NCBI RefSeq assembly: GCF_013363975.1
Contig: NZ_JABWGN010000011.1
Coordinates: 61,588 to 125,587, forward strand
Direction: 5' to 3'
Length of the DNA: 64,000 nt
Origin: Nonomuraea montanisoli
GTDB lineage: Bacteria; Actinomycetota; Actinomycetes; Streptosporangiales; Streptosporangiaceae
Each line of letters begins with the position of its first letter. Position 1 is the first letter of the stretch. Under the pieces are notes generated by a model. It was not told where the DNA came from. It searched no databases and worked only from the letters and a program-made list of their open reading frames with translations. Of this stretch, positions 46,571-58,710 are shown piece by piece. Position numbers and translations under genes: made by a program.

Positions 46571-47632
46571 GTGACCGTACGTATCTGTGCCGCCGCGGCA
46601 GCCATCCTCGTCAGCGCCGGGTGCGGCGCGTCGTCCACCACCAGCACGCCGTCCAAGCCGCTCCCGCCGGTGAACGTGCGGGCCCTGTCGCTGAAAGAGG
46701 GCTTCGGCGACATGGACCGGCTCGCGGCGGCGGCCCGCCAGGAGGGCTCACTCAACGTCATCGGGCTGCCCCACGACTGGATGAACTACGGCGGGCTCAT
46801 CGCCACCTTCACCGAGAAGTACGGCGTCAAGGTGAACGAGATCGAGCCCAACGCCAGCAGCGCCCGGCAGATCCAGGCCGCCTCGCAGCTCAGGCCCGAC
46901 GTGTTCGACCTCACCCTGGACGTCGCGGTGGCCCACGCCAACCGGTTCGCGCCCTACCGGGTGGCGGGCTGGCAGGACGTGCCGGACGACGTCAAGGACC
47001 CGTCCGGCTCCTGGTACGCCGCCTACGGGTCGTACATGTCGATCGGCTACGACCCGCGCGTGCCCGCGCCCGCCTCGTTCGCCGACCTCGCCAAGCCCGG
47101 CTACACGGTCGCGCTCGACGGCGACCCGCTGCGCTCGGAGGCGGCCTTCGACGGCGTCATGGCGGCCTCGCTGGAGCGCGGCACGCCGCACGTCCGGCGC
47201 GGGGTGGAGCTGTTCGGCAAGCTCGGGCAGGCCGGACGGCTCACCGATCCGGCCAGGGCCAACGTGATCGTGACCTGGGACCACGTCAACGCCCGCCGCG
47301 CCGCCCAGCGCCCCGACGGGTGGAAGGTGGTCATCCCGAAGGACGCGCCGCTCGGCTCGTACCACGTGCAGGCGATCTACAAGAACGCGCCGCACCCGGC
47401 GGCGGCCCGGCTGTGGGAGGAGTTCCTGTTCTCCGACGAGGGCCAGAACCTGCTGCTGCGCGGGTACGCCCGGCCGGCGCGCGCGGAGGCCATGCTCATG
47501 CACGGCAAACTGGACACCCAGATGGGCGCCAAGCTGCCCGTGCCGCCCGGCCCGCCGGTTCTCCTCACGATCCCGCAAACCGACGCTGGAAAGTCCTATC
47601 TGAAGAGAGAATGGACAAAGAGCGTCCGGTGA
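46571..47632 (+). CDS. lipoprotein, ABC-type substrate-binding protein
   Basis: 353 residues from GTG 46571, 17 bases after the previous gene. The signal ends in a lipobox VSAGC (Cys about 18). The mature part follows the family of PotD/iron-type periplasmic binding proteins: EGSLNVIGLPHDWMNYGGLIATFTEKYGVKVNE, DVFDLTLDVAVAH, and a late AARLWEEFLFSDEGQNLLLRGYARPAR, all usual for spermidine/putrescine or ferric binders. No permease or ATPase gene is adjacent, so it is an orphan receptor or works with a distant transporter. Confidence 0.87.
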   Translation: MTVRICAAAAAILVSAGCGASSTTSTPSKPLPPVNVRALSLKEGFGDMDRLAAAARQEGSLNVIGLPHDWMNYGGLIATFTEKYGVKVNEIEPNASSARQIQAASQLRPDVFDLTLDVAVAHANRFAPYRVAGWQDVPDDVKDPSGSWYAAYGSYMSIGYDPRVPAPASFADLAKPGYTVALDGDPLRSEAAFDGVMAASLERGTPHVRRGVELFGKLGQAGRLTDPARANVIVTWDHVNARRAAQRPDGWKVVIPKDAPLGSYHVQAIYKNAPHPAAARLWEEFLFSDEGQNLLLRGYARPARAEAMLMHGKLDTQMGAKLPVPPGPPVLLTIPQTDAGKSYLKREWTKSVR

Positions 47633-47732
47633 GACCGATGTGACTTGGTATGTCATAGCGACGCTCAGCCTCTAAAGTGAACGGGCAGCACGGCCACGGG
47701 GGCCCGATGTCTGAGAATGTGAGCTGATCGTC

Positions 47733-48509
47733 TTGCGATATGACACACCGAGCTTGGAGCGGTGGAGCAGTCGCGCCTACGACGGCAGTTTCGGCTACGT
47801 CTCCACCCAGGGCGCTCCCCTGGTCGACCTGCTGGACCCGCGGCCCGGGGAGCGCGTGCTCGACCTGGGCTGCGGCACCGGCGTCCTGACCGCGCAGATC
47901 GCCGCGCGCGGCGCCGAGGTGCTCGGCATCGACGGCTCCCCCGCCATGATCGAGAAGGCGCTCGCGCAGCACCCCGGCATCGACTTCATCGTCGGCGACG
48001 GCCACGACTTCACCGTCGTCCAGGGGTACGACGCCGTCTTCTCCAACGCCGCGCTCCACTGGATGAGCCGCGACCCCGCCACCGTGATCGCCAATGTCCG
48101 CGAGGCCCTGGTCCCCGGCGGCCGGTTCGTCGCCGAGATGGGCGGGGCCGGCAACTGCGCCGAGCTGACCGCCGCCATGCTGACGGCCTGGCGGGAGTAC
48201 GGACTGCGCGAGCCCGACCTGCCCTGGTACTTCCCCACGCCCGCCGAGTACGCCCGCCGCCTGGAGCAGGAGGGCTTCGTGGTGCGGCTGCTGGAGTACT
48301 TCGACCGCCCCACGCCTCTCGACGAGTGCCCCGGCGGGGCCGCCGACTGGGTGCGGATGTTCGCCTCCTCGGTCATCGAGGGCCTGCCTCCGGAGGTCGT
48401 CGCGCCGCTGCTCGGGCGGGTCAACGAGCTGGCCGCTCCCGCGCTGCGCAGGGAGACCGGCTGGATGGCGGATTACGTGCGTCTACGCTTCGCCGCTGTC
48501 CGGCGCTGA
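47733..48509 (+). CDS. class I SAM-dependent methyltransferase
   Basis: 258 residues from TTG 47733 (RYDTPSLERWSSRAYDGSFGYVS). SAM motif I VLDLGCGTGVLTAQIAARGAEVLGIDGS, then VGDGHDFTVVQGYDAVFSNAALHWM and the post-motif VPGGRFVAEMGGAGN. It is of the methyltransferase type 11/trans-aconitate-like group. Substrate unknown. The start codon is uncertain because no good ribosome site is present. The next gene cluster starts 50 bases downstream. Confidence 0.9.
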   Translation: MRYDTPSLERWSSRAYDGSFGYVSTQGAPLVDLLDPRPGERVLDLGCGTGVLTAQIAARGAEVLGIDGSPAMIEKALAQHPGIDFIVGDGHDFTVVQGYDAVFSNAALHWMSRDPATVIANVREALVPGGRFVAEMGGAGNCAELTAAMLTAWREYGLREPDLPWYFPTPAEYARRLEQEGFVVRLLEYFDRPTPLDECPGGAADWVRMFASSVIEGLPPEVVAPLLGRVNELAAPALRRETGWMADYVRLRFAAVRR

Positions 48510-48546
48510 TGCGTAGTCCATGATGCGTAGGGCTGTTTTGCCGGAC

Positions 48547-48652
48547 TATGGTCTGTTCCGTGGGCGGTGAGACTGTGCCCGCACCGCGATACGCACGTTT
48601 TGATGAGCTTGACGAGCCTTTGCGACGACACGGCGGCGTGAGGGGCCGGTGA
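48547..48652 (+). CDS. 30-codon leaderless small ORF at the head of the helicase cluster
   Basis: TATGGT (48547-48552), 7 bases, then GTG 48560 opens a 30-codon frame (begins MGGETVPAPR, contains RFDELDEPLRRHGG) ending in TGA 48650-48652, 10 bases before the 744-residue gene. The promoter-start geometry is the same as in at least eight genes of this window. It may be a translated leader that couples to the next gene, or a true small protein. No family. Confidence 0.5.
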
Positions 48653-48662
48653 ACGGAACGGG

Positions 48663-50897
48663 ATGAACTTCAGCCTGAGCGACCTCGTACCACCGTTGAG
48701 GTGGAGCGACGCGTCCACGATCACGCTGCTCACCGGGCAGCCGGACCTTCCGGACGCCTGGTGGCGCAGCCTGCCGCTGCCCCGCGTCCTCGCGGTCATC
48801 GGGCCGGAGGCGCTGGGAGAGCTGCTCACGGAGGTCGCGCTGGAGCAGTGGCCCGCCGCCGCCGTGGGCGACGTCCTGCCGGCGCTGCACGTCCTCGACC
48901 CCGAGGAGGCGGACGAGCCGCACGTCGCGATCGCGCTCGACCGGGCCGGCTCGTGGGCCGGGCTGCTCACGCTGACCGGGCGGGAGCTGGTGGACCAGCC
49001 GTTCATCCAGGCGCGCGCGGTGCTGGGGACGCTGTTCTCGGCGGTGTTCGCCCGGCTGTCCCCCGTGCCGTCGGGCCCTCCGGTGCCTTCTGCCCACGCG
49101 GTCGAGGCGCCCGCCGCGTTCGCCGCCCCGTCCGTGGCCGCCCCTTCTGCGGCCGCCGTGAGTCACGCGCCAGAGGCCGTGGACCGGCCGGAGCCGGAGC
49201 CTGAGGCGGCGCCCGAGGCGGGCGAGCCGGACGACGCCGAGGCCGGGCGAGACGAGGTCGCAGCCGCGCACGCCGAGCCGGGTCCGGCCGCGGCCGAGGA
49301 CGCCGAGCCCGAGCCCGGCCAGGCCGAGGCTGACTCCGACGAGCCGGAGCGTGCCGAGATCGAGCACGCCGGGGCTGAGCACGCCGAGGGTGGTCAGGAC
49401 GCGGCCGAGGACGCCGAAGCCGAGCACGCCGAGGGCGCGCGGTCTGAGGACGACGCGCGGCCCCAGGGCGAGGACGCCGAGCAGGCGGAGGCACCGGAGG
49501 TCGGCGACGCGCAGGCCGAGCACGCTGAGGGCGCACCGGCCGACGAGGCCGGGGAAGCCGAGGACGCCGGGGAAGCCGAGGACGCCGGGGAAGCCGAGGA
49601 GGCCGGGGATGCCGGGGATGCCGAGGCTCAGGACGAGGAGCCCGAGGAGGCCCGCGCCGAGGACACCCAGGACGACGAGGAGCTCGTCGAGCCGGAGCCC
49701 GCGCCCGACGGCGCCCCCGAGCCCGAGGACGCCGCGGCCGCCGCGGCGCAGCGTGACCTGTCCGACCTGATCGAGGCCGCCTTCGCCGGGCTCGACGACA
49801 AGAGCTGGGCCGTCGCCCAGAACCGCGTGTTCACCGACGAGCCGTCCGCCGTGGATCAGCTCGCCAAGCTGTTCGCCGTCCCGCCCGCCGAGATCGTCGA
49901 GACCGAGGCGGGGCTGCGCGCCCTCGTGGACCGGTGGCTGGGCAGCGACGAGGCGGCCCCGTTCCGGGCGCATCTGGACGAGCTACGCAGGACGATCGGC
50001 CCGGCCGCGCCGCGGGACGAGCTGATCGGCGCCGCCTCCTGGCACACCAAGGAGATCAAGGCACTGGAGGTGCCGGCCTGGCAGGTCGTGCTGGCCACAC
50101 TGCCGGCCCGGCCCGCGCAGGGACCTCCGCACGCCGCCGGCGGCGCGCCGGCCGCTCCCCCCGGGCCGCCCGGGAAGGCGGGCCCGTCCGTGTTCCACGC
50201 CTTCACCCCGGCCGCGCCGCCGGCCGGGCAGAGCAACGGCGGCTCCGGCGAGCACCACCCGGACGCCGCCGAGCAGCCCGCCGCCGAGCAGCCCGCCGCC
50301 GAGGAGCCCCCGGCCGTCGAGCCCGTACCCGTGCAGCACGACGTCCCCCGGGGCGGCGAGCAGCAGATCGGCAAGCCGTACCAGCCACTGAAGGACGTCT
50401 CCCAGACGCGGCGCTGCTTCCGCCAGCCGGACGGCAGATGGTGGCTGCGCGTGGACGTGACGGCCGAGCAGCTCGCGGGCGGCGAGTGCCCGCTGCCGAC
50501 CGGGTTCGCCGCCTACCTGGGGCTCTCGCCCGGCGAGACGCGCACGGTGCGCAGCGCGGCGGGCGAGCTGACGATGACCTGGCACGGCCGGCCGGTGATG
50601 GAGTCGGTGGAACGGCTGCTGGTGGACGTCGGCGCGAAGGAGGGCGGCCACCTGTTCCTCACGCTGTCGGACGAGGGCGTGCTGCGGGCCCGGCACCTGC
50701 CGGTCGCCGCGCAGGGCGCCGAGAAGATCACCAAGGCGCTCCGCCTGGTCGGCTACACCGCTCCGGGCGGCACGCGTGACCAGGCCGCCCGGGTGATCGC
50801 CACCCGGATCGGCCTGACGGGCCCCGTGGCCCTGCCGGACCTGCTGAACCGGCTGCGCGAGCGCGGCGACCGCGACCTGCTCGCCCTGCTGGACTGA
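48663..50897 (+). CDS. paralog A: large two-domain protein with acidic repeat insert and degenerate HTH
   Basis: 744 residues. Residues 1-130 (MNFSLSDLVPPLRWSDASTI) and 568-744 (KPYQPLKDVSQTRRCFRQ ... RLRERGDRDLLALLD) align with the ends of the protein at 52777. Residues about 137-362 are an Ala/Glu/Asp-rich insert with AEHAEG and AGEAED repeats. Residues 366-480 align with the sigma-region-4 segment of the paralog, but the recognition helix TRERIRQIE reads PPAEIVETE, so DNA binding by this helix is unlikely. The winged-helix part of the paralog is missing and replaced by a Pro-rich linker. The helicase gene starts 6 bases after the stop. Function unknown. Confidence 0.8.
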   Translation: MNFSLSDLVPPLRWSDASTITLLTGQPDLPDAWWRSLPLPRVLAVIGPEALGELLTEVALEQWPAAAVGDVLPALHVLDPEEADEPHVAIALDRAGSWAGLLTLTGRELVDQPFIQARAVLGTLFSAVFARLSPVPSGPPVPSAHAVEAPAAFAAPSVAAPSAAAVSHAPEAVDRPEPEPEAAPEAGEPDDAEAGRDEVAAAHAEPGPAAAEDAEPEPGQAEADSDEPERAEIEHAGAEHAEGGQDAAEDAEAEHAEGARSEDDARPQGEDAEQAEAPEVGDAQAEHAEGAPADEAGEAEDAGEAEDAGEAEEAGDAGDAEAQDEEPEEARAEDTQDDEELVEPEPAPDGAPEPEDAAAAAAQRDLSDLIEAAFAGLDDKSWAVAQNRVFTDEPSAVDQLAKLFAVPPAEIVETEAGLRALVDRWLGSDEAAPFRAHLDELRRTIGPAAPRDELIGAASWHTKEIKALEVPAWQVVLATLPARPAQGPPHAAGGAPAAPPGPPGKAGPSVFHAFTPAAPPAGQSNGGSGEHHPDAAEQPAAEQPAAEEPPAVEPVPVQHDVPRGGEQQIGKPYQPLKDVSQTRRCFRQPDGRWWLRVDVTAEQLAGGECPLPTGFAAYLGLSPGETRTVRSAAGELTMTWHGRPVMESVERLLVDVGAKEGGHLFLTLSDEGVLRARHLPVAAQGAEKITKALRLVGYTAPGGTRDQAARVIATRIGLTGPVALPDLLNRLRERGDRDLLALLD

Positions 50898-50903
50898 GGC
50901 GCC

Positions 50904-52724
50904 GTGCCGCGGCTCGCGATCGGCCCCGGGCTCCCCGGGCGGCTCAGCGCACTGGCACAGCCGGTGCGCAGGGACGCCGTGGTCGCGTTACGCCGCTTCC
51001 TGCTCAACGTGGCGGGCGGGCCCCATCCCGAGCGGGTGCGCGGCGCCCGGGACGCCCGGGTGGCGACGCTGCGCCTGGGCGAGGGGCATCGCGGGGTCGT
51101 GGTGCGGCAGCGGGACGTGTACTGGCTGCGCACGGTGCTGCCCGACGCGGAGGCGTGGTCGCACGCCCGCCGGCACCGGTACGGGATCAACCCGGTCCTC
51201 GGCGTGGTCGAGGAGTGGGACGCCGACGCGCTCGAACGCGTGGAGCCGGCGCTGCGCCGGTCGGCGGGCGCCACCCGGCTGTTCGACCCGATCTGCGACG
51301 GCGACCTGCTCGCGCTCGGCATCGACGTGCGCGCCCTGCCCCTGGTCCGGCTGATCACGGCCGAGACGGACGTGGAGGCGCTCGAACCCTTCCTGCCGCC
51401 CACCCAGCACGCCCCGCTGTCGGCGCTGGCGCGCGGCGGGTCGCTGTCGGAGGCGTGGCGGGAGCTCGACGGCTGGCGCGCCGTGGACGAGGAACCGCGC
51501 CAGATCGACACCGAGGACCTGCACGCGGCGCTGTGCCGCAGCCCGGACCGGGCCGTGTTCGTCGCCGACAAGGTGGAGCTGGACCGGGTGCTGGGCGCGC
51601 CGGAGTGGTGCACGTTCCTGCGCCCGCCGCAGCACCGGCTGGCCCGCGCCGGCCGCTACGAGCAGCCGGTGCTGGTCATCGGCGGCCCGGGCACCGGCAA
51701 GACGCTCGTGGCGCTGCACCGGGCCGCGCATCTGGCCGCCCGGGGCAAGGGCCCGGTGCTGCTGGTGACGTTCTCCCAGAGCCTGGGCGAGGACCTGGCG
51801 GCCCGGCTGGACACGCTCATCGACGACGAGACCGTGCGCAAGCGGGTCGAGGTGGGCAACCCCGAGCGGCTGGCCATGCGGATCGTCAGCGAGGCCGAGG
51901 GCCGCCGTCCCGCGCTCATGGGGCCCGGGGCGCGCACGCTGGCCGAGCTGACCGACGAGGCGCTGCGGCTGCTGTCGCGGGCGACGGGTGACCTGCTCGA
52001 CGACGTGGACCCGGGACGCAAGCCGTACCGGCACATCGTCGTGGACGACGCGCAGGACTACAGCCCGGCGCAGTGGCGGCTGCTGCGGGCGGCGGCGCCG
52101 CACGCGCACGACGACCTGTTCGTCCTCGGCGACCCGCACCAGCGGGTGACCGACACACGGGTGGCGCTCGGCGCGCTCGGCATCCCCGCCGAGCAGCGCA
52201 CGCTGCGGGTCTCCTACCGGCTGTCGCAGGAGGTGCTGTCGTTCGCGGTGCGCCTTCGGGGCGGCGGTCCGGTGGACGGCCTGGTCAAGGGCATGTCCCC
52301 GTTGTACGGACTGCACGCGGAGCGGATCGGCGAGCGGCCGGTGGTGCTGGCGTACGAGTCGCCGGAGGCGGAGCTCGCGGGCCTGGCCGCCACCGTCGGC
52401 GCCTGGCTGGAGGAGGGCGTGCCGCCCGGCGGGATCGCGGTGGCCGCCCGCACCCCCGCCCTGGTCCGGGCCGCCCGGCGGGCGCTGGGCGACCGGGACG
52501 TGCGGGTCTCGACGTTCCAGGGCCTGAAGGGGCTGGAGTTCGAGCGGGTGGCGGTCATCGGCGTGTCCGAGGGCGTGGTGCCCGAGACGCCGCCCGACGA
52601 TCCCGCCGCGAGAGCCCGCGCGCTCCAGCGTGAACGCGGCATGCTGTACGTGGCCTGTACCCGGGCCAGGTCGATCCTTTACGTCTCGCACTCCGGAAGA
52701 GGCAGCCCTTTTCTGTCGTTCTGA
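50904..52724 (+). CDS. RelE-like domain fused to a UvrD/Rep-type (SF1) helicase
   Basis: 606 residues from GTG 50904. Residues 1-105 (PRLAIGPGLPGRLSALAQPV ... GARDARVATLRLGEGHRGVVV ... YWLRTVLPDAEAWSHARRHRYGINPVLGVVE) resemble the RelE/ParE-like N-terminal domains seen on some UvrD-like helicases. The ATPase part has Walker A GGPGTGKT (260-267), motif II VVDDAQD (usual DExQD is DDAQD here), GDPHQR (409-414), VSYRLSQEVLSFA, TFQGLKGLEFERV and YVACTRAR. It is small for UvrD and lacks obvious 2B insertions. Translated almost contiguously with paralog A, followed by paralog B. Role in DNA or RNA processing unknown. Confidence 0.88.
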   Translation: MPRLAIGPGLPGRLSALAQPVRRDAVVALRRFLLNVAGGPHPERVRGARDARVATLRLGEGHRGVVVRQRDVYWLRTVLPDAEAWSHARRHRYGINPVLGVVEEWDADALERVEPALRRSAGATRLFDPICDGDLLALGIDVRALPLVRLITAETDVEALEPFLPPTQHAPLSALARGGSLSEAWRELDGWRAVDEEPRQIDTEDLHAALCRSPDRAVFVADKVELDRVLGAPEWCTFLRPPQHRLARAGRYEQPVLVIGGPGTGKTLVALHRAAHLAARGKGPVLLVTFSQSLGEDLAARLDTLIDDETVRKRVEVGNPERLAMRIVSEAEGRRPALMGPGARTLAELTDEALRLLSRATGDLLDDVDPGRKPYRHIVVDDAQDYSPAQWRLLRAAAPHAHDDLFVLGDPHQRVTDTRVALGALGIPAEQRTLRVSYRLSQEVLSFAVRLRGGGPVDGLVKGMSPLYGLHAERIGERPVVLAYESPEAELAGLAATVGAWLEEGVPPGGIAVAARTPALVRAARRALGDRDVRVSTFQGLKGLEFERVAVIGVSEGVVPETPPDDPAARARALQRERGMLYVACTRARSILYVSHSGRGSPFLSF

Positions 52725-52776
52725 ACACATAGTCTGAACTGCGGATATCTTCCCATTGCCGGTTGGTTGGACCCGA

Positions 52777-54624
52777 ATGAATCTCAGCCTGAGCGACCTC
52801 GCGCCACCCGTGCGCTGGACCTCTCCTGGTCAGGTCGCGCCCATCGCGGAAGATCCCCAGCTGCCCGAGGCGTGGTGGCAGGCGATCCCGCTCGACCGCG
52901 CCTGCGCCGTCATCGGCCCCCAGGGCGTCGCCGGCCACCTCGCCGACCTCGCCGTGGCCTGCTGGGGCCATCTGATCCTCGGCGACATCCTGCCGCTGCT
53001 GCGCTTCTCCGACCCGGCCGAGGCCGAGCGCACGCCGGAGATGCTGGGCAAGGACGTGGTGCAGAAACTGTTCGGCGGGGTGTTCGAGCGGCTGCTCGAA
53101 CCCGTCGCCGACGCCCCGGCGACGCCCGCCCGGCGCGACAAGCCGCTGCCCGACCTCATCGACGGCCTCTTCCGGTCCCTCGACGACCGGCAGCGGGCCA
53201 TCGCCCGCGACCGGCTCTACGCCGCCCAGCGGGTCACGCTCGACGAGCTGGCGCAGCGTTTCTCGGTCACCCGGGAGCGCATCAGGCAGATCGAGCGCGA
53301 CCTGCGCGACCACGTGGAGGCGTGGCTCGGCGGACCCGACGCGGTGCCGCTCGTCGCGCACGTCACCTGGCTGCGCGGCCGGCTGGGCTCCGCCGTGCCG
53401 TCCGACGACCTCGCCGCGGCCGTGCCGTGGCACCGCGCGGAGCTGCGCGCGCTCGGCATCCCCGCCTGGAGGTTCGTGCGCACCCTGCTGACCGGCTACG
53501 AGCAGGCCGAGGGCTGGCTCGTCGCGGGCGGCGCCGAGGAGCTGCGGGAGAAGACCCGCCAGCTCTTCACCGACGGGCCCCGCCCGCTGGCCGAGGCCGT
53601 CACCATGGTCGCCCAGCTCGGCGTGCGCGAGGACGTCGCCGAGCGCTGGATCAAGTCCGTGCCGCAACTGCGCGTGCTGGAGCAGCACGTCGTGCCGTGG
53701 CCGCGCAGCATCAACGAGAAGGCCGAGGCCGTGCTGGCCGTCGCCGGCAAGCCGCTGTCGCCCGAGGAGATCCAGGAGCGCATCGGCGAGGACTACAGCC
53801 TCGTCGGCATCCGCAACCAGCTCACCGCCGACGACCGGTTCCTGCGGGTCGACCGCAACAAGTACGGGCTGACCAGGTGGGGCGGCGACGAGTACCTCGG
53901 CATCCGGGAGATGATCGCCCGCGAGATCGAGCGGGCCGGCGGCGAGGCGTCCGTCAGCACCATCGTCACCAACCTCACCTCGCGCTACGACGTCAGCGAG
54001 AGCTCGGTGCGGGCCTACTCGGGCGGCCCCGGGTTCGAGCGGACCCAGCGCGGGTGGATCCGGGTCGCGGGCACGTCCCCGGCCGGCGGGACCGCCGAGC
54101 CGTACCAGCCGCGCAAGGACGTCTCGCTGACGCGGCGCAGCTTCCGCAGCCGCGACGGGCGGTGGTGGCACCGGGTGGACGTCAACGCCGAGCACCTGCG
54201 CGGGTCGGGCTCGCCGCTGCCGACCGGGTTCGCCGCCTACCTGGGCATGGCGCCCGGCGGGCAGCTCACCGCCTCGACGCCGTCCGGTGACGTGGTGGTG
54301 AGCTGGCACAACCAGCCGACCATGGGATCGATCCGCAACGTGCTGGCCGATTTCAAGGCCGGTGAGGGCGACCACGTCTTCCTGACCGTCTCCGACGGCG
54401 GCGAGCTGCTGACGCGGTACCTGCCGGCCGCGCCGGTGGCGATGCCGCCGCTCAACCGGGCGCTCTACCTCATCGGCTACACCGCGCCGGTGACCTCCGA
54501 GGCGGAGGGGCTGCGGCTGATCGGCGCCCGCGTCGGGCTGCCCGACACGGCGACGCGTGACGAGGTGCTGGCCCGGCTGCGGGAGCGCGGCGACCGCGAC
54601 ATCCTCGGCTTCCTGGGCGGCTGA
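52777..54624 (+). CDS. paralog B: sigma-region-4-like HTH and winged-helix DNA-binding protein
   Basis: 615 residues from ATG 52777 (MNLSLSDLAPPVRWTS), preceded by TAGTCT (52730-52735). Domains: N-terminal paralog domain (1-110); sigma-70-region-4-like HTH at 153-177 (VTLDELAQRFSVTRERIRQIE); helical middle; a winged-helix/HARE-like unit (about 300-430, LSPEEIQERIGEDYSLVGIRNQL ... VRAYSGGPGF); and the C-terminal beta-rich domain shared with paralog A (443-615). No region 2, so it is not a sigma factor. It likely binds DNA through two modules. It lies 52 bases after the helicase gene. Confidence 0.85.
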   Translation: MNLSLSDLAPPVRWTSPGQVAPIAEDPQLPEAWWQAIPLDRACAVIGPQGVAGHLADLAVACWGHLILGDILPLLRFSDPAEAERTPEMLGKDVVQKLFGGVFERLLEPVADAPATPARRDKPLPDLIDGLFRSLDDRQRAIARDRLYAAQRVTLDELAQRFSVTRERIRQIERDLRDHVEAWLGGPDAVPLVAHVTWLRGRLGSAVPSDDLAAAVPWHRAELRALGIPAWRFVRTLLTGYEQAEGWLVAGGAEELREKTRQLFTDGPRPLAEAVTMVAQLGVREDVAERWIKSVPQLRVLEQHVVPWPRSINEKAEAVLAVAGKPLSPEEIQERIGEDYSLVGIRNQLTADDRFLRVDRNKYGLTRWGGDEYLGIREMIAREIERAGGEASVSTIVTNLTSRYDVSESSVRAYSGGPGFERTQRGWIRVAGTSPAGGTAEPYQPRKDVSLTRRSFRSRDGRWWHRVDVNAEHLRGSGSPLPTGFAAYLGMAPGGQLTASTPSGDVVVSWHNQPTMGSIRNVLADFKAGEGDHVFLTVSDGGELLTRYLPAAPVAMPPLNRALYLIGYTAPVTSEAEGLRLIGARVGLPDTATRDEVLARLRERGDRDILGFLGG

Positions 54625-54675
54625 CCGCCGTTCTCGCGAGCGGTTCGCGGGGGCGGCCCGGTTAGGCTCGGAGCC

Positions 54676-55914
54676 ATGCTGCGGATCCACGACAGCCGGA
54701 CCGGGACCATCGGGGAGCTCGCGGTGGGGCGGGCGCTGCGGACGTACGCGTGCGTGCCCTCCGTGGACGGGCGGCCCCGTCTCGGCGAGCTGCGGCCGCT
54801 CCTGGTGGCGGACCTGATCAGGCGGGTGCTCGAACGCGGGCGTGTCCGGGTGCTGGCCTGCCGGCCGCGCGGCCTCGCGCCGGGCGGCTCCCTGCCTTCG
54901 TACGGCGGCTCTCCGGACTTTTCGGGGGGTGGCTTTTCGGGAGGCGGCGGTTCTCCGGGTGAGGCTGGGGAGCGGGACGCCGCCGACCTCAACGTCCGGC
55001 CGGCCGAGCACGCGCCGCTCCCGGACGAGACCGTCCCCCTCGCGGTGCGGCTCGTCGAGGCGCTCGTGCAGAGAGGGCACGCGTACGCGGCGCCGGGCGG
55101 GCCGGTCTTCTTCGACGCCGGGACGTACCCCGGCCTCTCTGCGGGCGTGCCGGAGGACGGCGAGGAGGCCGGTGGGCGGCGCTCCCCCGGCGACTGGGTG
55201 CTGTGGCGCCCGGCCGGCACGGAGCCGTCCTGGGAGTCCCCCTGGGGACGGGGCGTGCCGGGACCGCACGTGGCGTGCTCGGCCGTGGCGCTGGGGCTGC
55301 TCCGCGGCCGGGTGGACGTCCACGTGAGTGGCGGCGCGTACGACGATCGTGAGCGCGCGCAGGGCGACGCGGCGGCCGGTCAGGAGGTCGTGCGGCACTG
55401 GGTTCGCACGGCGGAGGTGTCGTTCGACGGCGGCTCGGCGGACGGCGGCTCGGCGGACGGCGGCTCGGCGGACGGCGGTTCGGCGGACGGCGTCGTGGAG
55501 GCGGAGGCGGAGGCGGACGGCGGGACGTCGCTGTCCGGCGGGACGTCGCTGTCGGGCGTCGTGGAGGCCGGGCTGGACCCGCTGGCCGTGCGCATGGCGT
55601 TCCTGGAGCACCATCACCGGCGGCCGATCGAACTCACCTGGGACGCCCTGCGCGCCGCCGACCGGGCCGTGCGTCACTGGCGGGCGCGGGTGGCGCGGTG
55701 GTCGGAGTCGCCCAGCGCGCCCATGGCGGCCGAGTACGTCAAGCGCGTCGAGGCCGCGTTCGACGACGATCTCGACACTCGGGGCGCGCTGCGGGTGCTG
55801 CGGGAGCTGGAGGACGACGCGTCGGTGTCGCCGGGCGCGCGGTTCGAGACGTTCCTGCACGTGGACCAGGTGCTGGGGCTCGACCTGTCCGCCGACATCG
55901 GCCGGACCCCCTGA
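54676..55914 (+). CDS. cysteinyl-tRNA-synthetase-like protein lacking catalytic motifs
   Basis: 412 residues. ATG 54676 lies 7 bases after TAGGCT (54663-54668), so leaderless. The order of CysRS/MshC landmarks is kept: LRIHDSRTGT start; TYACVPSVDG for YVCGITVYD (zinc Cys kept); WVLWRPAGTEPSWESPWGRGVPGPHVACSAVAL for the SPWG-GRPGWHIECSAM block. But HIGH reads RLGE, the GGGxDLxFPHHENE block reads SGGAYDDRERAQ (His lost), and KMSKS is replaced by a repeat region with GGSAD x4 and GGTSLS x2. It should not activate cysteine. Function unknown, probably a binding protein. Confidence 0.82.
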   Translation: MLRIHDSRTGTIGELAVGRALRTYACVPSVDGRPRLGELRPLLVADLIRRVLERGRVRVLACRPRGLAPGGSLPSYGGSPDFSGGGFSGGGGSPGEAGERDAADLNVRPAEHAPLPDETVPLAVRLVEALVQRGHAYAAPGGPVFFDAGTYPGLSAGVPEDGEEAGGRRSPGDWVLWRPAGTEPSWESPWGRGVPGPHVACSAVALGLLRGRVDVHVSGGAYDDRERAQGDAAAGQEVVRHWVRTAEVSFDGGSADGGSADGGSADGGSADGVVEAEAEADGGTSLSGGTSLSGVVEAGLDPLAVRMAFLEHHHRRPIELTWDALRAADRAVRHWRARVARWSESPSAPMAAEYVKRVEAAFDDDLDTRGALRVLRELEDDASVSPGARFETFLHVDQVLGLDLSADIGRTP

Positions 55915-55960
55915 TGCCCCCTCCCGGGCCTGTCCCCCACAGAACGTGATCATGAATGAA

Positions 55961-56020
55961 TGCCCGGTGACGCCGGGGTTCCAGCTCCTCCGGAACCCGG
56001 CCGCAAGCGGGCGAGAGGAG
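55961..56020 (+). promoter_or_regulatory. structured RNA-like leader before the acylase gene
   Basis: Several short stems lie close together: CCGGGGTTCC (55973-55982) with GGAACCCGG (55992-56000) and one bulge, CCCGG-TGACG-CCGGG as an alternative, and CCGC-AA-GCGG directly after. It may be the terminator of the preceding gene or a regulatory leader of the gene at 56082. No known riboswitch class was recognised. Confidence 0.35.
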
Positions 56021-56081
56021 TGATCGGGGCCTGTCAGACTAAGGGTCCGGCGCGGGAGGACGCGGAGGATCGGAGGTTTTC

Positions 56082-58616
56082 GTGAGGTTGAGGCCCTACG
56101 CCTGGCTGCCGTGGCCGTTGCGCTGGCTGGCGCGGGCGCTGACCGTTCTCCTCGCCCTCGCGCTGGTGCTGACGGGCGTCGTCGTCCACACCGTCCGCAA
56201 GTCGTACCCCCAGGTCGACGGGTCGCTGCGGCTGCCCGGCTTAGCGAGCAATGTAGAGATTTATCGCGATAAGTACGGAATTCCGCAGATCTATGCGGAC
56301 ACCTCCGAAGACCTGTTCATGGCGCAGGGATTCGTCCACGCGCAGGACCGCTTCTGGGAGATGGACTTCCGGCGGCACGTGACCGCCGGGCGGCTGTCGG
56401 AGCTGTTCGGCAAGGCCACGCTCGACAGCGACAAGGCGATCCGCACCATGGGCTGGCGCAGGGTGGCCGAGCAGGAGCTGTCCGAGCTGTCCGAGCGCAC
56501 CCGGCGCTACCTCGACGCGTACGCCAAGGGCGTGAACGCCTGGCTCAGGGCCAACCCCAACGCCTCCGACCGCAGCCTCGAATACTCCGTGCTCAAGCTG
56601 ACCGGCGTCGACGCCAAGCCCGAGCCGTGGACGGCGCTCGACTCCGTCGCCTGGCTCAAGGCCATGGCCTGGGACCTGCGCTCGAACATGGAGGACGAGA
56701 TCGACCGCGCGCTCGCCCTCACCAGGCTGCCGCGCGAGCGGGTGGAGCAGCTCCACCCCGGATATCCGTTCGAGGAGCACGCGCCGATCGTGACGCGCGG
56801 CGCGATCCGGCAGGAGCAGTTCGACCAGACGGCCTCGCCGCGCCGCGGCCAGGGCACGCGCCCGCGCCGGCCGGCCGCGGCCGCGCTCGCCCAGGCCGCG
56901 CGGACGCTGGACGCCGTGCCCGGCACGATGAGCGGCGCCGACCGCGACGGCATCGGCTCGAACTCGTGGGTCGTCTCCGGCGAGCACACCCGGAGCGGCA
57001 AGCCCCTGCTGGCCAACGACCCGCACCTGTCCGCCGCGATGCCGTCGGTCTGGTACCAGGCGGGGCTGCACTGCCGCGAGCTGTCGGAGCGGTGCTCCTA
57101 CGACGTGACGGGGTTCACGTTCTCGGGCGTGCCCGGCGTCGTCATCGGCCACAACGACAAGATCGCCTGGGGGTTCACCAACCTCGGGCCGGACGTGGCC
57201 GACCTGTTCCTGGAGCAGGTGTCGGGCGACACGTACCTGTACCGGGGCGAGCGGGTCAAGCTGGAGAAGCGGCAGGAGAAGATCAAGGTCGCGGGCGGCG
57301 ACACCGTCACCATCGAGGTGCGCTCCACCAGGCACGGCCCGCTGATCAACGAGGTCATGGGCGACGTGCGACCGTCCGACGGCGCGAACGCGGTGGCGCT
57401 CCAGTGGACCGCGCTCATGCCCGGCCGCACCGCCGACGCCATCTTCGCGTTCAACGAGGCGGGCGACTGGCACGAGTTCCGCGCCGCGGCGGCGCTGTTC
57501 GAGGTGCCCGCGCAGAACCTCGTGTACGCCGACACCTCCGGCAACATCGGCTACCAGGCGCCCGGCCGGATCCCGGTGCGCGAGAAGGGCGACGGCACCT
57601 GGCCGGTGCCCGGCTGGACGGGCGAGTACGACTGGAAGACGGCGCCCATCCCGTACGACCAGCTCCCGTCGGTCGAGAACCCGGCCGAGGGCTACATCGT
57701 CACGGCCAACAACGCCGTCATCGACCCGCGGCGCTACCAGCCGCTGCTGACCAAGGACTGGTCGTACGGGTATCGCTCGCAGCGCATCACCGACCGGCTG
57801 AGGCAGGCGACCGCCAAGGGCGACGTGGACGCCTCCACCATGGCCGCGATCCAGCGCGACACCCGCAACGGCCTGGCCGAGACGCTGGTCCCGGCGCTCA
57901 TGGACGTGCGGATGGCGGGCCCCGCCGTACAGGCGCGGGACCTGCTGAAGGGCTGGGACGGCTCGCAGGGCGCCGACTCCGCGCCCGCCGCCTACTTCAA
58001 CGCCGTCTGGCGTCACCTGCTGAGCGACGCCTTCGACGACGACCTGCCCGAGGCAGCCCGCCCGAGCGGCGGCGACCGGTGGTACGTGGTGGTGCGGCGG
58101 CTGCTCGACTCGCCCGACGACCCGTTCTGGGACGACACCACCACCAAGGGCTTCCGGGAGACCCGCGACGACATCCTGCGGCAGGCGATGGCCGACGCGT
58201 ACCAGGAGGTGTCCGAGGCGCTCGGCTCCGACGTCCGCGCCTGGCGCTGGGGCGACCTGCACCGGCTCACGCTCACCAACGCCTCGCTCGGCACCTCGGG
58301 GATCGCGCCGGTGGAGGCGCTGTTCAACCGGGGGCCGCTGAGCGTGGCGGGCGGCAAGGACGCGGTGGACGCCACCGGCTGGAACGTCGGCAAGGGGTAC
58401 GAGGTCACGTCGGTGCCGTCGATGCGGATGGTGGTGGACCTGGCGGACCTGGACAAGTCCCAGTGGATCAACCTGACGGGGGCGTCGGGGCACGCCTTCC
58501 ACGCCAACTACTGGGACCAGGCGGAGACGTGGGCGAGGGGCGAGCTGACGCCGATGCGGTCGAAGCTGGAGTCGGTGCGGCAGTCTGCGGTCCACACGCT
58601 CCGCCTCCGCCCGTGA
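56082..58616 (+). CDS. penicillin acylase family protein (S45 Ntn-hydrolase)
   Basis: 844 residues from GTG 56082 (GGAGG 5-6 bases upstream). An N-terminal hydrophobic anchor (about 11-36), alpha chain with the FMAQGFVHAQDRFWEMD motif, a linker of about 50 residues with basic Arg/Ala sequence, and the autoproteolytic junction GIGSNSWVVSG whose first Ser becomes the beta-chain nucleophile. Then AWGFTNLGPDVADLF (oxyanion Asn region), and NNAVIDPRRY. Substrate could be an acyl-homoserine lactone, a lipopeptide or a beta-lactam; sequence alone does not decide. Probably secreted or membrane-attached. Confidence 0.94.
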   Translation: MRLRPYAWLPWPLRWLARALTVLLALALVLTGVVVHTVRKSYPQVDGSLRLPGLASNVEIYRDKYGIPQIYADTSEDLFMAQGFVHAQDRFWEMDFRRHVTAGRLSELFGKATLDSDKAIRTMGWRRVAEQELSELSERTRRYLDAYAKGVNAWLRANPNASDRSLEYSVLKLTGVDAKPEPWTALDSVAWLKAMAWDLRSNMEDEIDRALALTRLPRERVEQLHPGYPFEEHAPIVTRGAIRQEQFDQTASPRRGQGTRPRRPAAAALAQAARTLDAVPGTMSGADRDGIGSNSWVVSGEHTRSGKPLLANDPHLSAAMPSVWYQAGLHCRELSERCSYDVTGFTFSGVPGVVIGHNDKIAWGFTNLGPDVADLFLEQVSGDTYLYRGERVKLEKRQEKIKVAGGDTVTIEVRSTRHGPLINEVMGDVRPSDGANAVALQWTALMPGRTADAIFAFNEAGDWHEFRAAAALFEVPAQNLVYADTSGNIGYQAPGRIPVREKGDGTWPVPGWTGEYDWKTAPIPYDQLPSVENPAEGYIVTANNAVIDPRRYQPLLTKDWSYGYRSQRITDRLRQATAKGDVDASTMAAIQRDTRNGLAETLVPALMDVRMAGPAVQARDLLKGWDGSQGADSAPAAYFNAVWRHLLSDAFDDDLPEAARPSGGDRWYVVVRRLLDSPDDPFWDDTTTKGFRETRDDILRQAMADAYQEVSEALGSDVRAWRWGDLHRLTLTNASLGTSGIAPVEALFNRGPLSVAGGKDAVDATGWNVGKGYEVTSVPSMRMVVDLADLDKSQWINLTGASGHAFHANYWDQAETWARGELTPMRSKLESVRQSAVHTLRLRP

Positions 58617-58710
58617 GCTGCGGGTCTGTGGCCCGTACGACCCTGGTCGTATCGCGGAACCAGCCCTCGGGTTGACGCGCCCGAGCCCTCGCCTTCCGCA
58701 CCATGGAGGC

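What the first reader, a model, noticed from the sequence alone, without database searches (positions are those of the whole stretch)
48547..55914. Candidate undescribed system: two paralogous DNA-binding-type proteins flanking a RelE-UvrD helicase, plus a pseudo-CysRS
The order is a leaderless 30-codon ORF, paralog A (744 residues), RelE/UvrD helicase (6-base gap), paralog B (615 residues, sigma-4 HTH plus winged helix) and a CysRS-like protein without catalytic motifs. A and B share N- and C-terminal domains but differ in DNA-binding parts; the tight spacing suggests one functional unit. I know no named system with this composition. One possibility is a helicase complex loaded or positioned by paralog B and modulated by A; defence or transcription-coupled roles are equally open.
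Basis: partly seen in the sequence, partly recalled or inferred. Interest (0 to 1): 0.8.

Follow-up and report, generated by a model that had tools for sequence, protein, structure and literature searches.

The report
Self-regulated helicase operon of defence-related parts
A family of soil actinobacteria carries a fixed three-gene unit, a DNA-unwinding enzyme flanked by two sister DNA-binding-type proteins behind a control site of its own, some of whose relatives sit in anti-virus systems; what it does in the cell is not yet known.

Summary
The window is Nonomuraea (Streptosporangiaceae). A (744 aa), RelE-like/UvrD helicase H (606 aa) and B (615 aa) are real and form one unit: of 150 family genomes, 64 have B, 63 of these have H directly upstream, and A lies directly before H in 60 of 60 listed pairs. 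Conserved upstream neighbours suggest vertical inheritance. The 30-codon ORF is not supported: its ATG lies inside a palindromic element, TTTGCCRGACTATGGTCTG, found before 36 of 39 A genes, in no control region, and once in each genome holding it. The pseudo-CysRS is only a neighbour. A is B without the HARE/winged-helix block and with a ruined sigma-4 recognition helix. H is laid out like ArmD of ARMADA; a relative sits in a DISARM locus, but canonical H lacks the relatives' conserved His. B-like proteins stand beside the Dnd/Pbe helicase-nuclease PbeA, also in this genome. Best reading: a domesticated, autoregulated offshoot of defence parts in which B recognises DNA and positions H, and A modulates B. 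The unit is well supported; the mechanism is inferred.

The parts
48537..48555 (+). conserved element TTTGCCRGACTATGGTCTG (palindrome CAGAC-TATG-GTCTG, here CGGAC-TATG-GTCTG, holding a TAnnnT -10-like TATGGT): predicted promoter/operator of the A-H-B operon
   Evidence: 36 of 39 A genes at <=4 mismatches, beginning 42-135 bases before the A start; 0 of 30, 31 and 29 control regions before H, B and the methyltransferase; only site in the 9.76-Mb genome at <=3 mismatches, against one for the reversed control pattern; one copy in each of 58 of 150 family genomes
48663..50897 (+). A: paralogue of B without the HARE/winged-helix block, recognition helix degenerate, long low-complexity linker
50904..52724 (+). 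H: RelE-like N-terminal region plus UvrD-type SF1A helicase, laid out like ArmD of ARMADA II; about 80 aa lost in the six Nonomuraea compared
52777..54624 (+). B: N-terminal domain, sigma-70 region 4-type HTH (133-175), HARE-HTH/winged-helix block (about 301-440), C-terminal domain (441-613)
54676..55914 (+). C: degenerate CysRS-like protein; neighbour, judged not part of the unit

Best explanation
A, H and B are one operon behind a promoter/operator of its own, fixed in the chromosome of one clade of Streptosporangiaceae. B is the DNA-recognition subunit: its sigma-4-type HTH and HARE/winged-helix block read DNA, including probably the operon's own palindrome. H is an ArmD-type helicase that B places on its target. 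A, which keeps B's N- and C-terminal domains but has lost B's HARE/winged-helix block and its recognition helix, pairs with B or H and tunes them. The unit was assembled from parts that elsewhere serve defence systems (B-like in Dnd/Pbe loci, H-like in DISARM/ARMADA) and then domesticated: the RelE-like domain has lost the His conserved in its relatives, and the locus stays in one place. Shown: the unit, its gene order, element, distribution, domain losses and purifying selection. Inferred: DNA binding, A-B-H contacts, autoregulation, helicase loading, domestication and the cellular role, which I guess to be guarding against foreign or abnormal DNA.
For: Gene order and gaps in 29 loci; H-B adjacent in 63 of 63 genomes holding both, A-H in 60 of 60 listed. 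A, H and B distances correlate at r 0.85 with each other and 0.64-0.65 with the neighbouring methyltransferase, 0 of 999 permutations as high (27 loci). dN/dS of B 0.15-0.22, H 0.29-0.35, A 0.39-0.59 in four groups. Private element, not found at the two broken loci. The stretch TRER[IV]RQ of the sigma-4 helix is kept in 30 of 30 B and in 0 of 28 intact A. A covers B 121-300 (86-100%) and 441-600 (94-100%) but hardly 301-440 (9-29%). B-like directly next to PbeA in 4 of 9 non-canonical B-like loci found by B searches; from the other side, 4 of 6 strong PbeA loci have it; the own genome is in both counts. H-like next to DrmA/DrmB/DrmC in L160. Walker A lysine at residue 266 in H and in ArmD. RelE-region His 7 of 7 in relatives, 0 of 28 in canonical H.
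Against: No binding, complex or phenotype was tested. The B model is poor (pLDDT 58.6). Five of the nine B-like loci (L033, L063, L065, L066, L067) have no PbeA or H relative held beside them. G034 keeps B without A and most of H, and G025 keeps A without H and B, so parts may act alone or those loci may be decaying. Nonomuraea H lost about 80 aa, changed motif V, and in this strain changed Walker B Glu to Asp, so helicase activity here is doubtful. The RelE assignment is weak. L062, L092 and (at 5 mismatches) L073 miss the element's threshold.
Confidence: 0.42

Rival explanations
1. It is a working, stand-alone anti-phage system of the ARMADA/DISARM kind: B detects invader DNA, H unwinds or blocks it, and the RelE-like domain acts as an RNase.
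For: H has ArmD's layout, and ArmD is needed for ARMADA defence (paper section read); relatives of H and B lie in DISARM and Dnd/Pbe loci.
Against: No recognised nuclease, DNA methyltransferase or YprA/BrxHII helicase among A, H, B and the genes beside them; a fixed place beside metabolic-type genes; RelE-region His lost in 28 of 28; no hit to a defence model for A and only the sigma-4 part of MzaA for B, although H hits GajB models.
Confidence: 0.2
2. It is a transcription-linked complex: a sigma-4-like protein (B) and a HelD-like helicase (H) act on RNA polymerase, for example recycling it or steering it to promoters.
Confidence: 0.15
3. It is a genome-maintenance helicase with its own regulators, serving repair or replication restart.
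For: UvrD/PcrA-like core, conserved place, purifying selection.
Against: Not found in 86 of the 150 sampled family genomes; parts of H lost in Nonomuraea; relatives of H and B in defence loci.
Confidence: 0.15

Closest known systems
ARMADA type II, protein ArmD (PMC12458937)
   Same: H has the same two-part build, RelE-like region then GajB/UvrD-like helicase, with the Walker A lysine at residue 266 in both
   Different: no BrxHII-like helicase, PglX-like methyltransferase or YprA-like helicase recognised beside it; instead two B-type proteins; RelE-region His lost
Dnd/Pbe phosphorothioation loci with PbeA (HKD nuclease + SF2 helicase; TIGR04095)
   Same: a B-like protein with the same HTH, winged-helix and C-terminal regions is encoded directly next to the helicase enzyme, also in this genome (L060)
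   Different: helicase is SF2 with an HKD nuclease, not SF1; Dnd modification genes alongside; no A-type protein seen there
RelE-UvrD helicases of actinobacteria, one in a DISARM locus
   Same: homologues 39-46% identical to window H (7 aligned); L160 lies beside DrmA, DrmB, DrmC and a kinase, L158 near a DrmB
   Different: no A or B relative in the 11 fetched loci; conserved HDDAY-like motif
Gabija (GajA-GajB)
   Same: H matches GajB models of PADLOC (best E 3e-26)
   Different: no GajA-type nuclease match for A or B; H has a RelE-like N-terminus
MZA system, MzaA
   Same: sigma-4 HTH of B matches the end of the MzaA model
   Different: the match is 59 residues, 38 bits against a cut-off of 800

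Membership tests
ARMADA type II | RelE-like + GajB/UvrD-like helicase (ArmD) | tested here: inconclusive
   UvrD core clear; RelE-like region by fold order and layout only; no direct alignment with ArmD was made
ARMADA type II | YprA-like and BrxHII-like helicases and PglX-like methyltransferase in the operon | tested here: not met
   A, B and C give no such Pfam match; the gene before A matches general methyltransferase domains (Methyltransf_25/11) and the one after C is a penicillin acylase; the conserved neighbours are the same
DISARM | DrmA and DrmB | tested here: not met
   A and C have no PADLOC hit, B only MzaA; H's best 25 of 41 hits shown hold no Drm model
Gabija | GajA (OLD/TOPRIM nuclease) beside GajB | tested here: not met
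   A and B have no such match in Pfam or PADLOC
Dnd/Pbe | Dnd modification genes and PbeA beside the B-like protein | tested here: not met
   met at the own genome's other locus L060, not by A, H, B, C or the two flanking genes scanned
MZA | full-length MzaA | tested here: not met
   38 bits against cut-off 800
HelD/HelR RNA polymerase recycling motor | NCBIfam cut-off | tested here: not met
   56 bits against 750 (HelR) and 46 against 419 (HelD of Bacillus)
UvrD-type SF1A helicase | motifs I, II, III, V, VI and two-domain fold | tested here: met
   motif V altered and about 80 aa missing in Nonomuraea
RelE/ParE toxin superfamily | significant profile match | tested here: inconclusive
   not among the 25 of 29 Pfam families shown for 35 members; hhalign best E 0.012 over 30 columns, control stretches 0.14-0.8
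B3/EcoRII-N DNA-binding pseudobarrel (C-terminal domain of A and B) | fold match | tested here: inconclusive
   Foldseek VRN1 prob 0.94 but E 0.34, ARF1/ARF2 lower; not among the 50 VIA rows; PF02362 not found in the own genome at E<=1; profile search of the PDB gave only an unrelated E 0.045 hit

The most novel reading that the evidence does not exclude
B-type proteins (sigma-4 HTH + HARE/winged helix + shared C-terminal domain) are an unnamed class of DNA-recognition adaptors that plug into different helicase effectors, PbeA in Dnd islands and a RelE-UvrD helicase here; A-H-B is the domesticated form, with a DNA-blind sister subunit and one private operator per genome, so its targets can be read out directly.
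Probability: 0.35. Interest if true: 0.72.

Novelty: new variant of a known kind. Interest (0 to 1): 0.55.

Why it matters
If B-type proteins are adaptors that aim helicases at DNA, one mechanism would link Dnd/Pbe and RelE-UvrD (DISARM/ARMADA-type) parts, and this locus gives a small, three-gene, single-operator version that can be tested in the laboratory. It would also be a case of defence parts turned into a fixed chromosomal function.

Tried and rejected
Small ORF: rejected, it overlaps a conserved element and its frame is not kept. Pseudo-CysRS as a partner: rejected. RNA families: none at the gathering score in 47500-58700. Consensus promoter and terminator scan of 48300-56200: none. 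Papers: eight searches. I saw listings and beginnings of abstracts, passages of PMC12458937, PMC12839542 and PMC10853773 and sections 5 and 6 of PMC12458937; none of this describes A-H-B. This is not proof of absence, as most subscription papers are not held. The TIGR04095 search 'rang' in 296 of 296 genomes at E<=0.001 because SF2 helicases score; I used only the six matches of 365 bits or more. The B fold search mostly returned sigma factors; no family is excluded by absence from it. EcoRII-N: 1 of 198 phylum genomes, not the own one.

Rows dropped: L064, L072, L086 and L094 were left out of the distance test; L094 out of the element count because A is cut by the contig end. In one search the 31 'B' controls include the lone A of L064, and the 30 H controls the H remnant of L072. 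Alignment A3 left out nine A proteins (L078, L084, L086-L088, L093-L095, L098); one search covers them. Alignment A2 (28 canonical H) left out L086 and the remnant L072. The nine B-like loci and the lone A-type loci are those found by the calls named, not a census. L150-L152, L156 and L157 were read by tblastn only; several neighbour genes were named by eye and only those were scanned. Start codons are the first in each frame, so 5 of 29 A-H gaps fall outside 3-18 bases (L062, L071, L086, L092, L095).
Full report
What is there. The window lies in a Nonomuraea genome: the nearest named relatives are N. lactucae (91%) and N. maritima (88%), and the same protein was found by name in Sinosporangium, Streptosporangium, Acrocarpospora, Microtetraspora, Microbispora, Planotetraspora, Herbidospora and Sphaerimonospora. 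The coordinates of A, H, B and C are right. Pfam gives UvrD for H, sigma-70 region 4 for B, a CysRS fragment for C and nothing for A.

One unit. In 29 loci including the window the order is A, H, B, with the methyltransferase before A in the 28 where the contig allows; 24 of 29 A-H gaps are 3-18 bases, H-B gaps are 31-64 and 23 of 29 are 47-51. Among 150 family genomes, 64 have a canonical B (in G068 and G121 split over contig ends) and 63 a canonical H; all 63 pairs are adjacent on one strand. A's C-terminal hit was listed in 60 of the 63 and is directly before H in all 60; for the other three (G031, G108, G148) the output was cut, and G031 has A at the place (L076). Two genomes hold remnants: G034 has B with only the end of H, G025 has A alone. 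Protein distances of A, H and B agree (r about 0.85) more than with the adjacent methyltransferase (0.64-0.65), in 27 loci. All three show dN/dS below 1, B lowest, in four groups of 4-6 loci. In 296 phylum genomes, five besides the own one have a match of B at E<1e-10, all partial.

The control site. The motif is present at up to 4 mismatches before 36 of 39 A genes (the genome of L084 and L170 is counted twice), beginning 42-135 bases before the start, and before none of 30 H, 31 B and 29 methyltransferase starts. Its 5-base arms pair perfectly in 24 of the 36. In the own genome it is the only site at up to 3 mismatches; the reversed control pattern also has one. In 150 genomes it occurs at up to 2 mismatches once in each of 58: 56 of these are among the 63 with canonical H; 53 lie on the same contig and strand 1.6-4.9 kb before H, two (G038, G094) on another contig, one (G062) elsewhere; two other genomes (G017, G105) have a 2-mismatch site. 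The reversed control pattern was found in five genomes, so the three off-locus hits are at chance level. The site holds a TAnnnT -10-like hexamer overlapped by the palindrome, so I read it as promoter plus operator; the consensus scan did not flag a promoter. That the operon's own proteins bind it is inference.

Domain anatomy. The TRER[IV]RQ stretch of B's sigma-4 helix is kept in 30 of 30 B and in 0 of 28 intact A (L071 A keeps TERI). In 28 A proteins compared with window B, mean coverage is 100% for B 1-80, 71-73% for 81-120, 86-100% for 121-300, 9-29% for 301-440 and 94-100% for 441-600; 301-440 holds the HARE/winged-helix block. Intact A proteins are 536-1580 aa. H has UvrD motifs; in the six Nonomuraea compared about 80 aa between motifs I and II are gone and motif V is altered; in this strain the Walker B Glu is Asp. 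The RelE-like region has the order strand, two helices, strands, helix. The seven RelE-UvrD relatives keep an H-D-D-A-Y-like motif (His 7 of 7, Tyr 6 of 7); canonical H has no His there in 28 of 28, and one (L097) keeps the Tyr. That this His is catalytic is my guess from RelE-type toxins (recalled). The shared C-terminal domain gave weak matches to plant B3 domains; unproven.

Where the relatives live. H-type N-termini occur in 108 of 150 family genomes and 36 of 246 class genomes, canonical ones included. In the 11 loci fetched around non-canonical ones no A or B relative was found; L160 is a DISARM locus with DrmA over its NCBIfam cut-off plus DrmB and DrmC, L158 has a DrmB, L163 a kinase, N6-methylase and PLD protein, L168 an N6-methylase and a McrBC protein. 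The 2025 ARMADA paper (sections 5 and 6 and passages read; [quoted passage not shown] its Walker A residue is K266, as in H. Of nine non-canonical B-like loci (L033, L060, L063, L065-L070), four (L060, L068, L069, L070) have PbeA directly next door; the own genome's L060 also has DndB, DndA, the Dnd-associated methyltransferase and TIGR04062 over their cut-offs, and DndD and TIGR04095 matches below theirs. Of six strong TIGR04095 loci in 296 class genomes (none over the cut-off of 600), four have a B-like end directly upstream (L293 weakly; L295 is L060 again) and two do not within the 1.5 kb held. The Dnd paper (passages read) describes PbeA as HKD nuclease plus SF2 helicase, and a HARE-HTH fused to a restriction-enzyme domain, for which it proposes a role in telling modified DNA; the passages I saw do not describe B-like proteins.

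Judgement. The parts have relatives in defence systems; the unit behaves like a fixed chromosomal operon. I therefore favour a domesticated, B-guided helicase over an active stand-alone defence system, with transcription or repair roles open. It fails tested features of ARMADA, DISARM, Gabija, Dnd/Pbe, MZA and HelD as systems, while H may work like an ArmD-type helicase and B like the partner of PbeA.

Noticed in passing
L060 (own genome, C12:12000-31000): A Dnd phosphorothioation locus with PbeA and a B-like protein (639 aa) directly next to it.
   Followed up: partly
L061 7497-9887: A lone A-type protein (796 aa) elsewhere in the own genome; similar lone A-type proteins in other genera, two of them (L149, L153) near what look by eye like suf genes.
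   Followed up: partly
window 50904-52724: Nonomuraea H lost about 80 aa between motifs I and II, has an altered motif V, and this strain has DDAQD instead of DEAQD: a possibly decaying or re-purposed helicase.
   Followed up: partly
L072 (G034) and L064 (G025): Natural partial losses: B kept without A and most of H; A kept without H and B. The conserved element was not found at either place.
   Followed up: partly
window 54676-55914: The CysRS-like gene's open frame holds an HxGN motif in 12 of 28 loci and KMSK in one: a decaying CysRS paralogue in a conserved neighbourhood.
   Followed up: partly
L098 (G009) A protein, and others: A's low-complexity linker varies widely, up to a 1580-aa protein.
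   Followed up: no
L067 (G262): A B-like protein (753 aa) several kb from a large protein that looks by eye like a DEAD-type helicase; not resolved.
   Followed up: no
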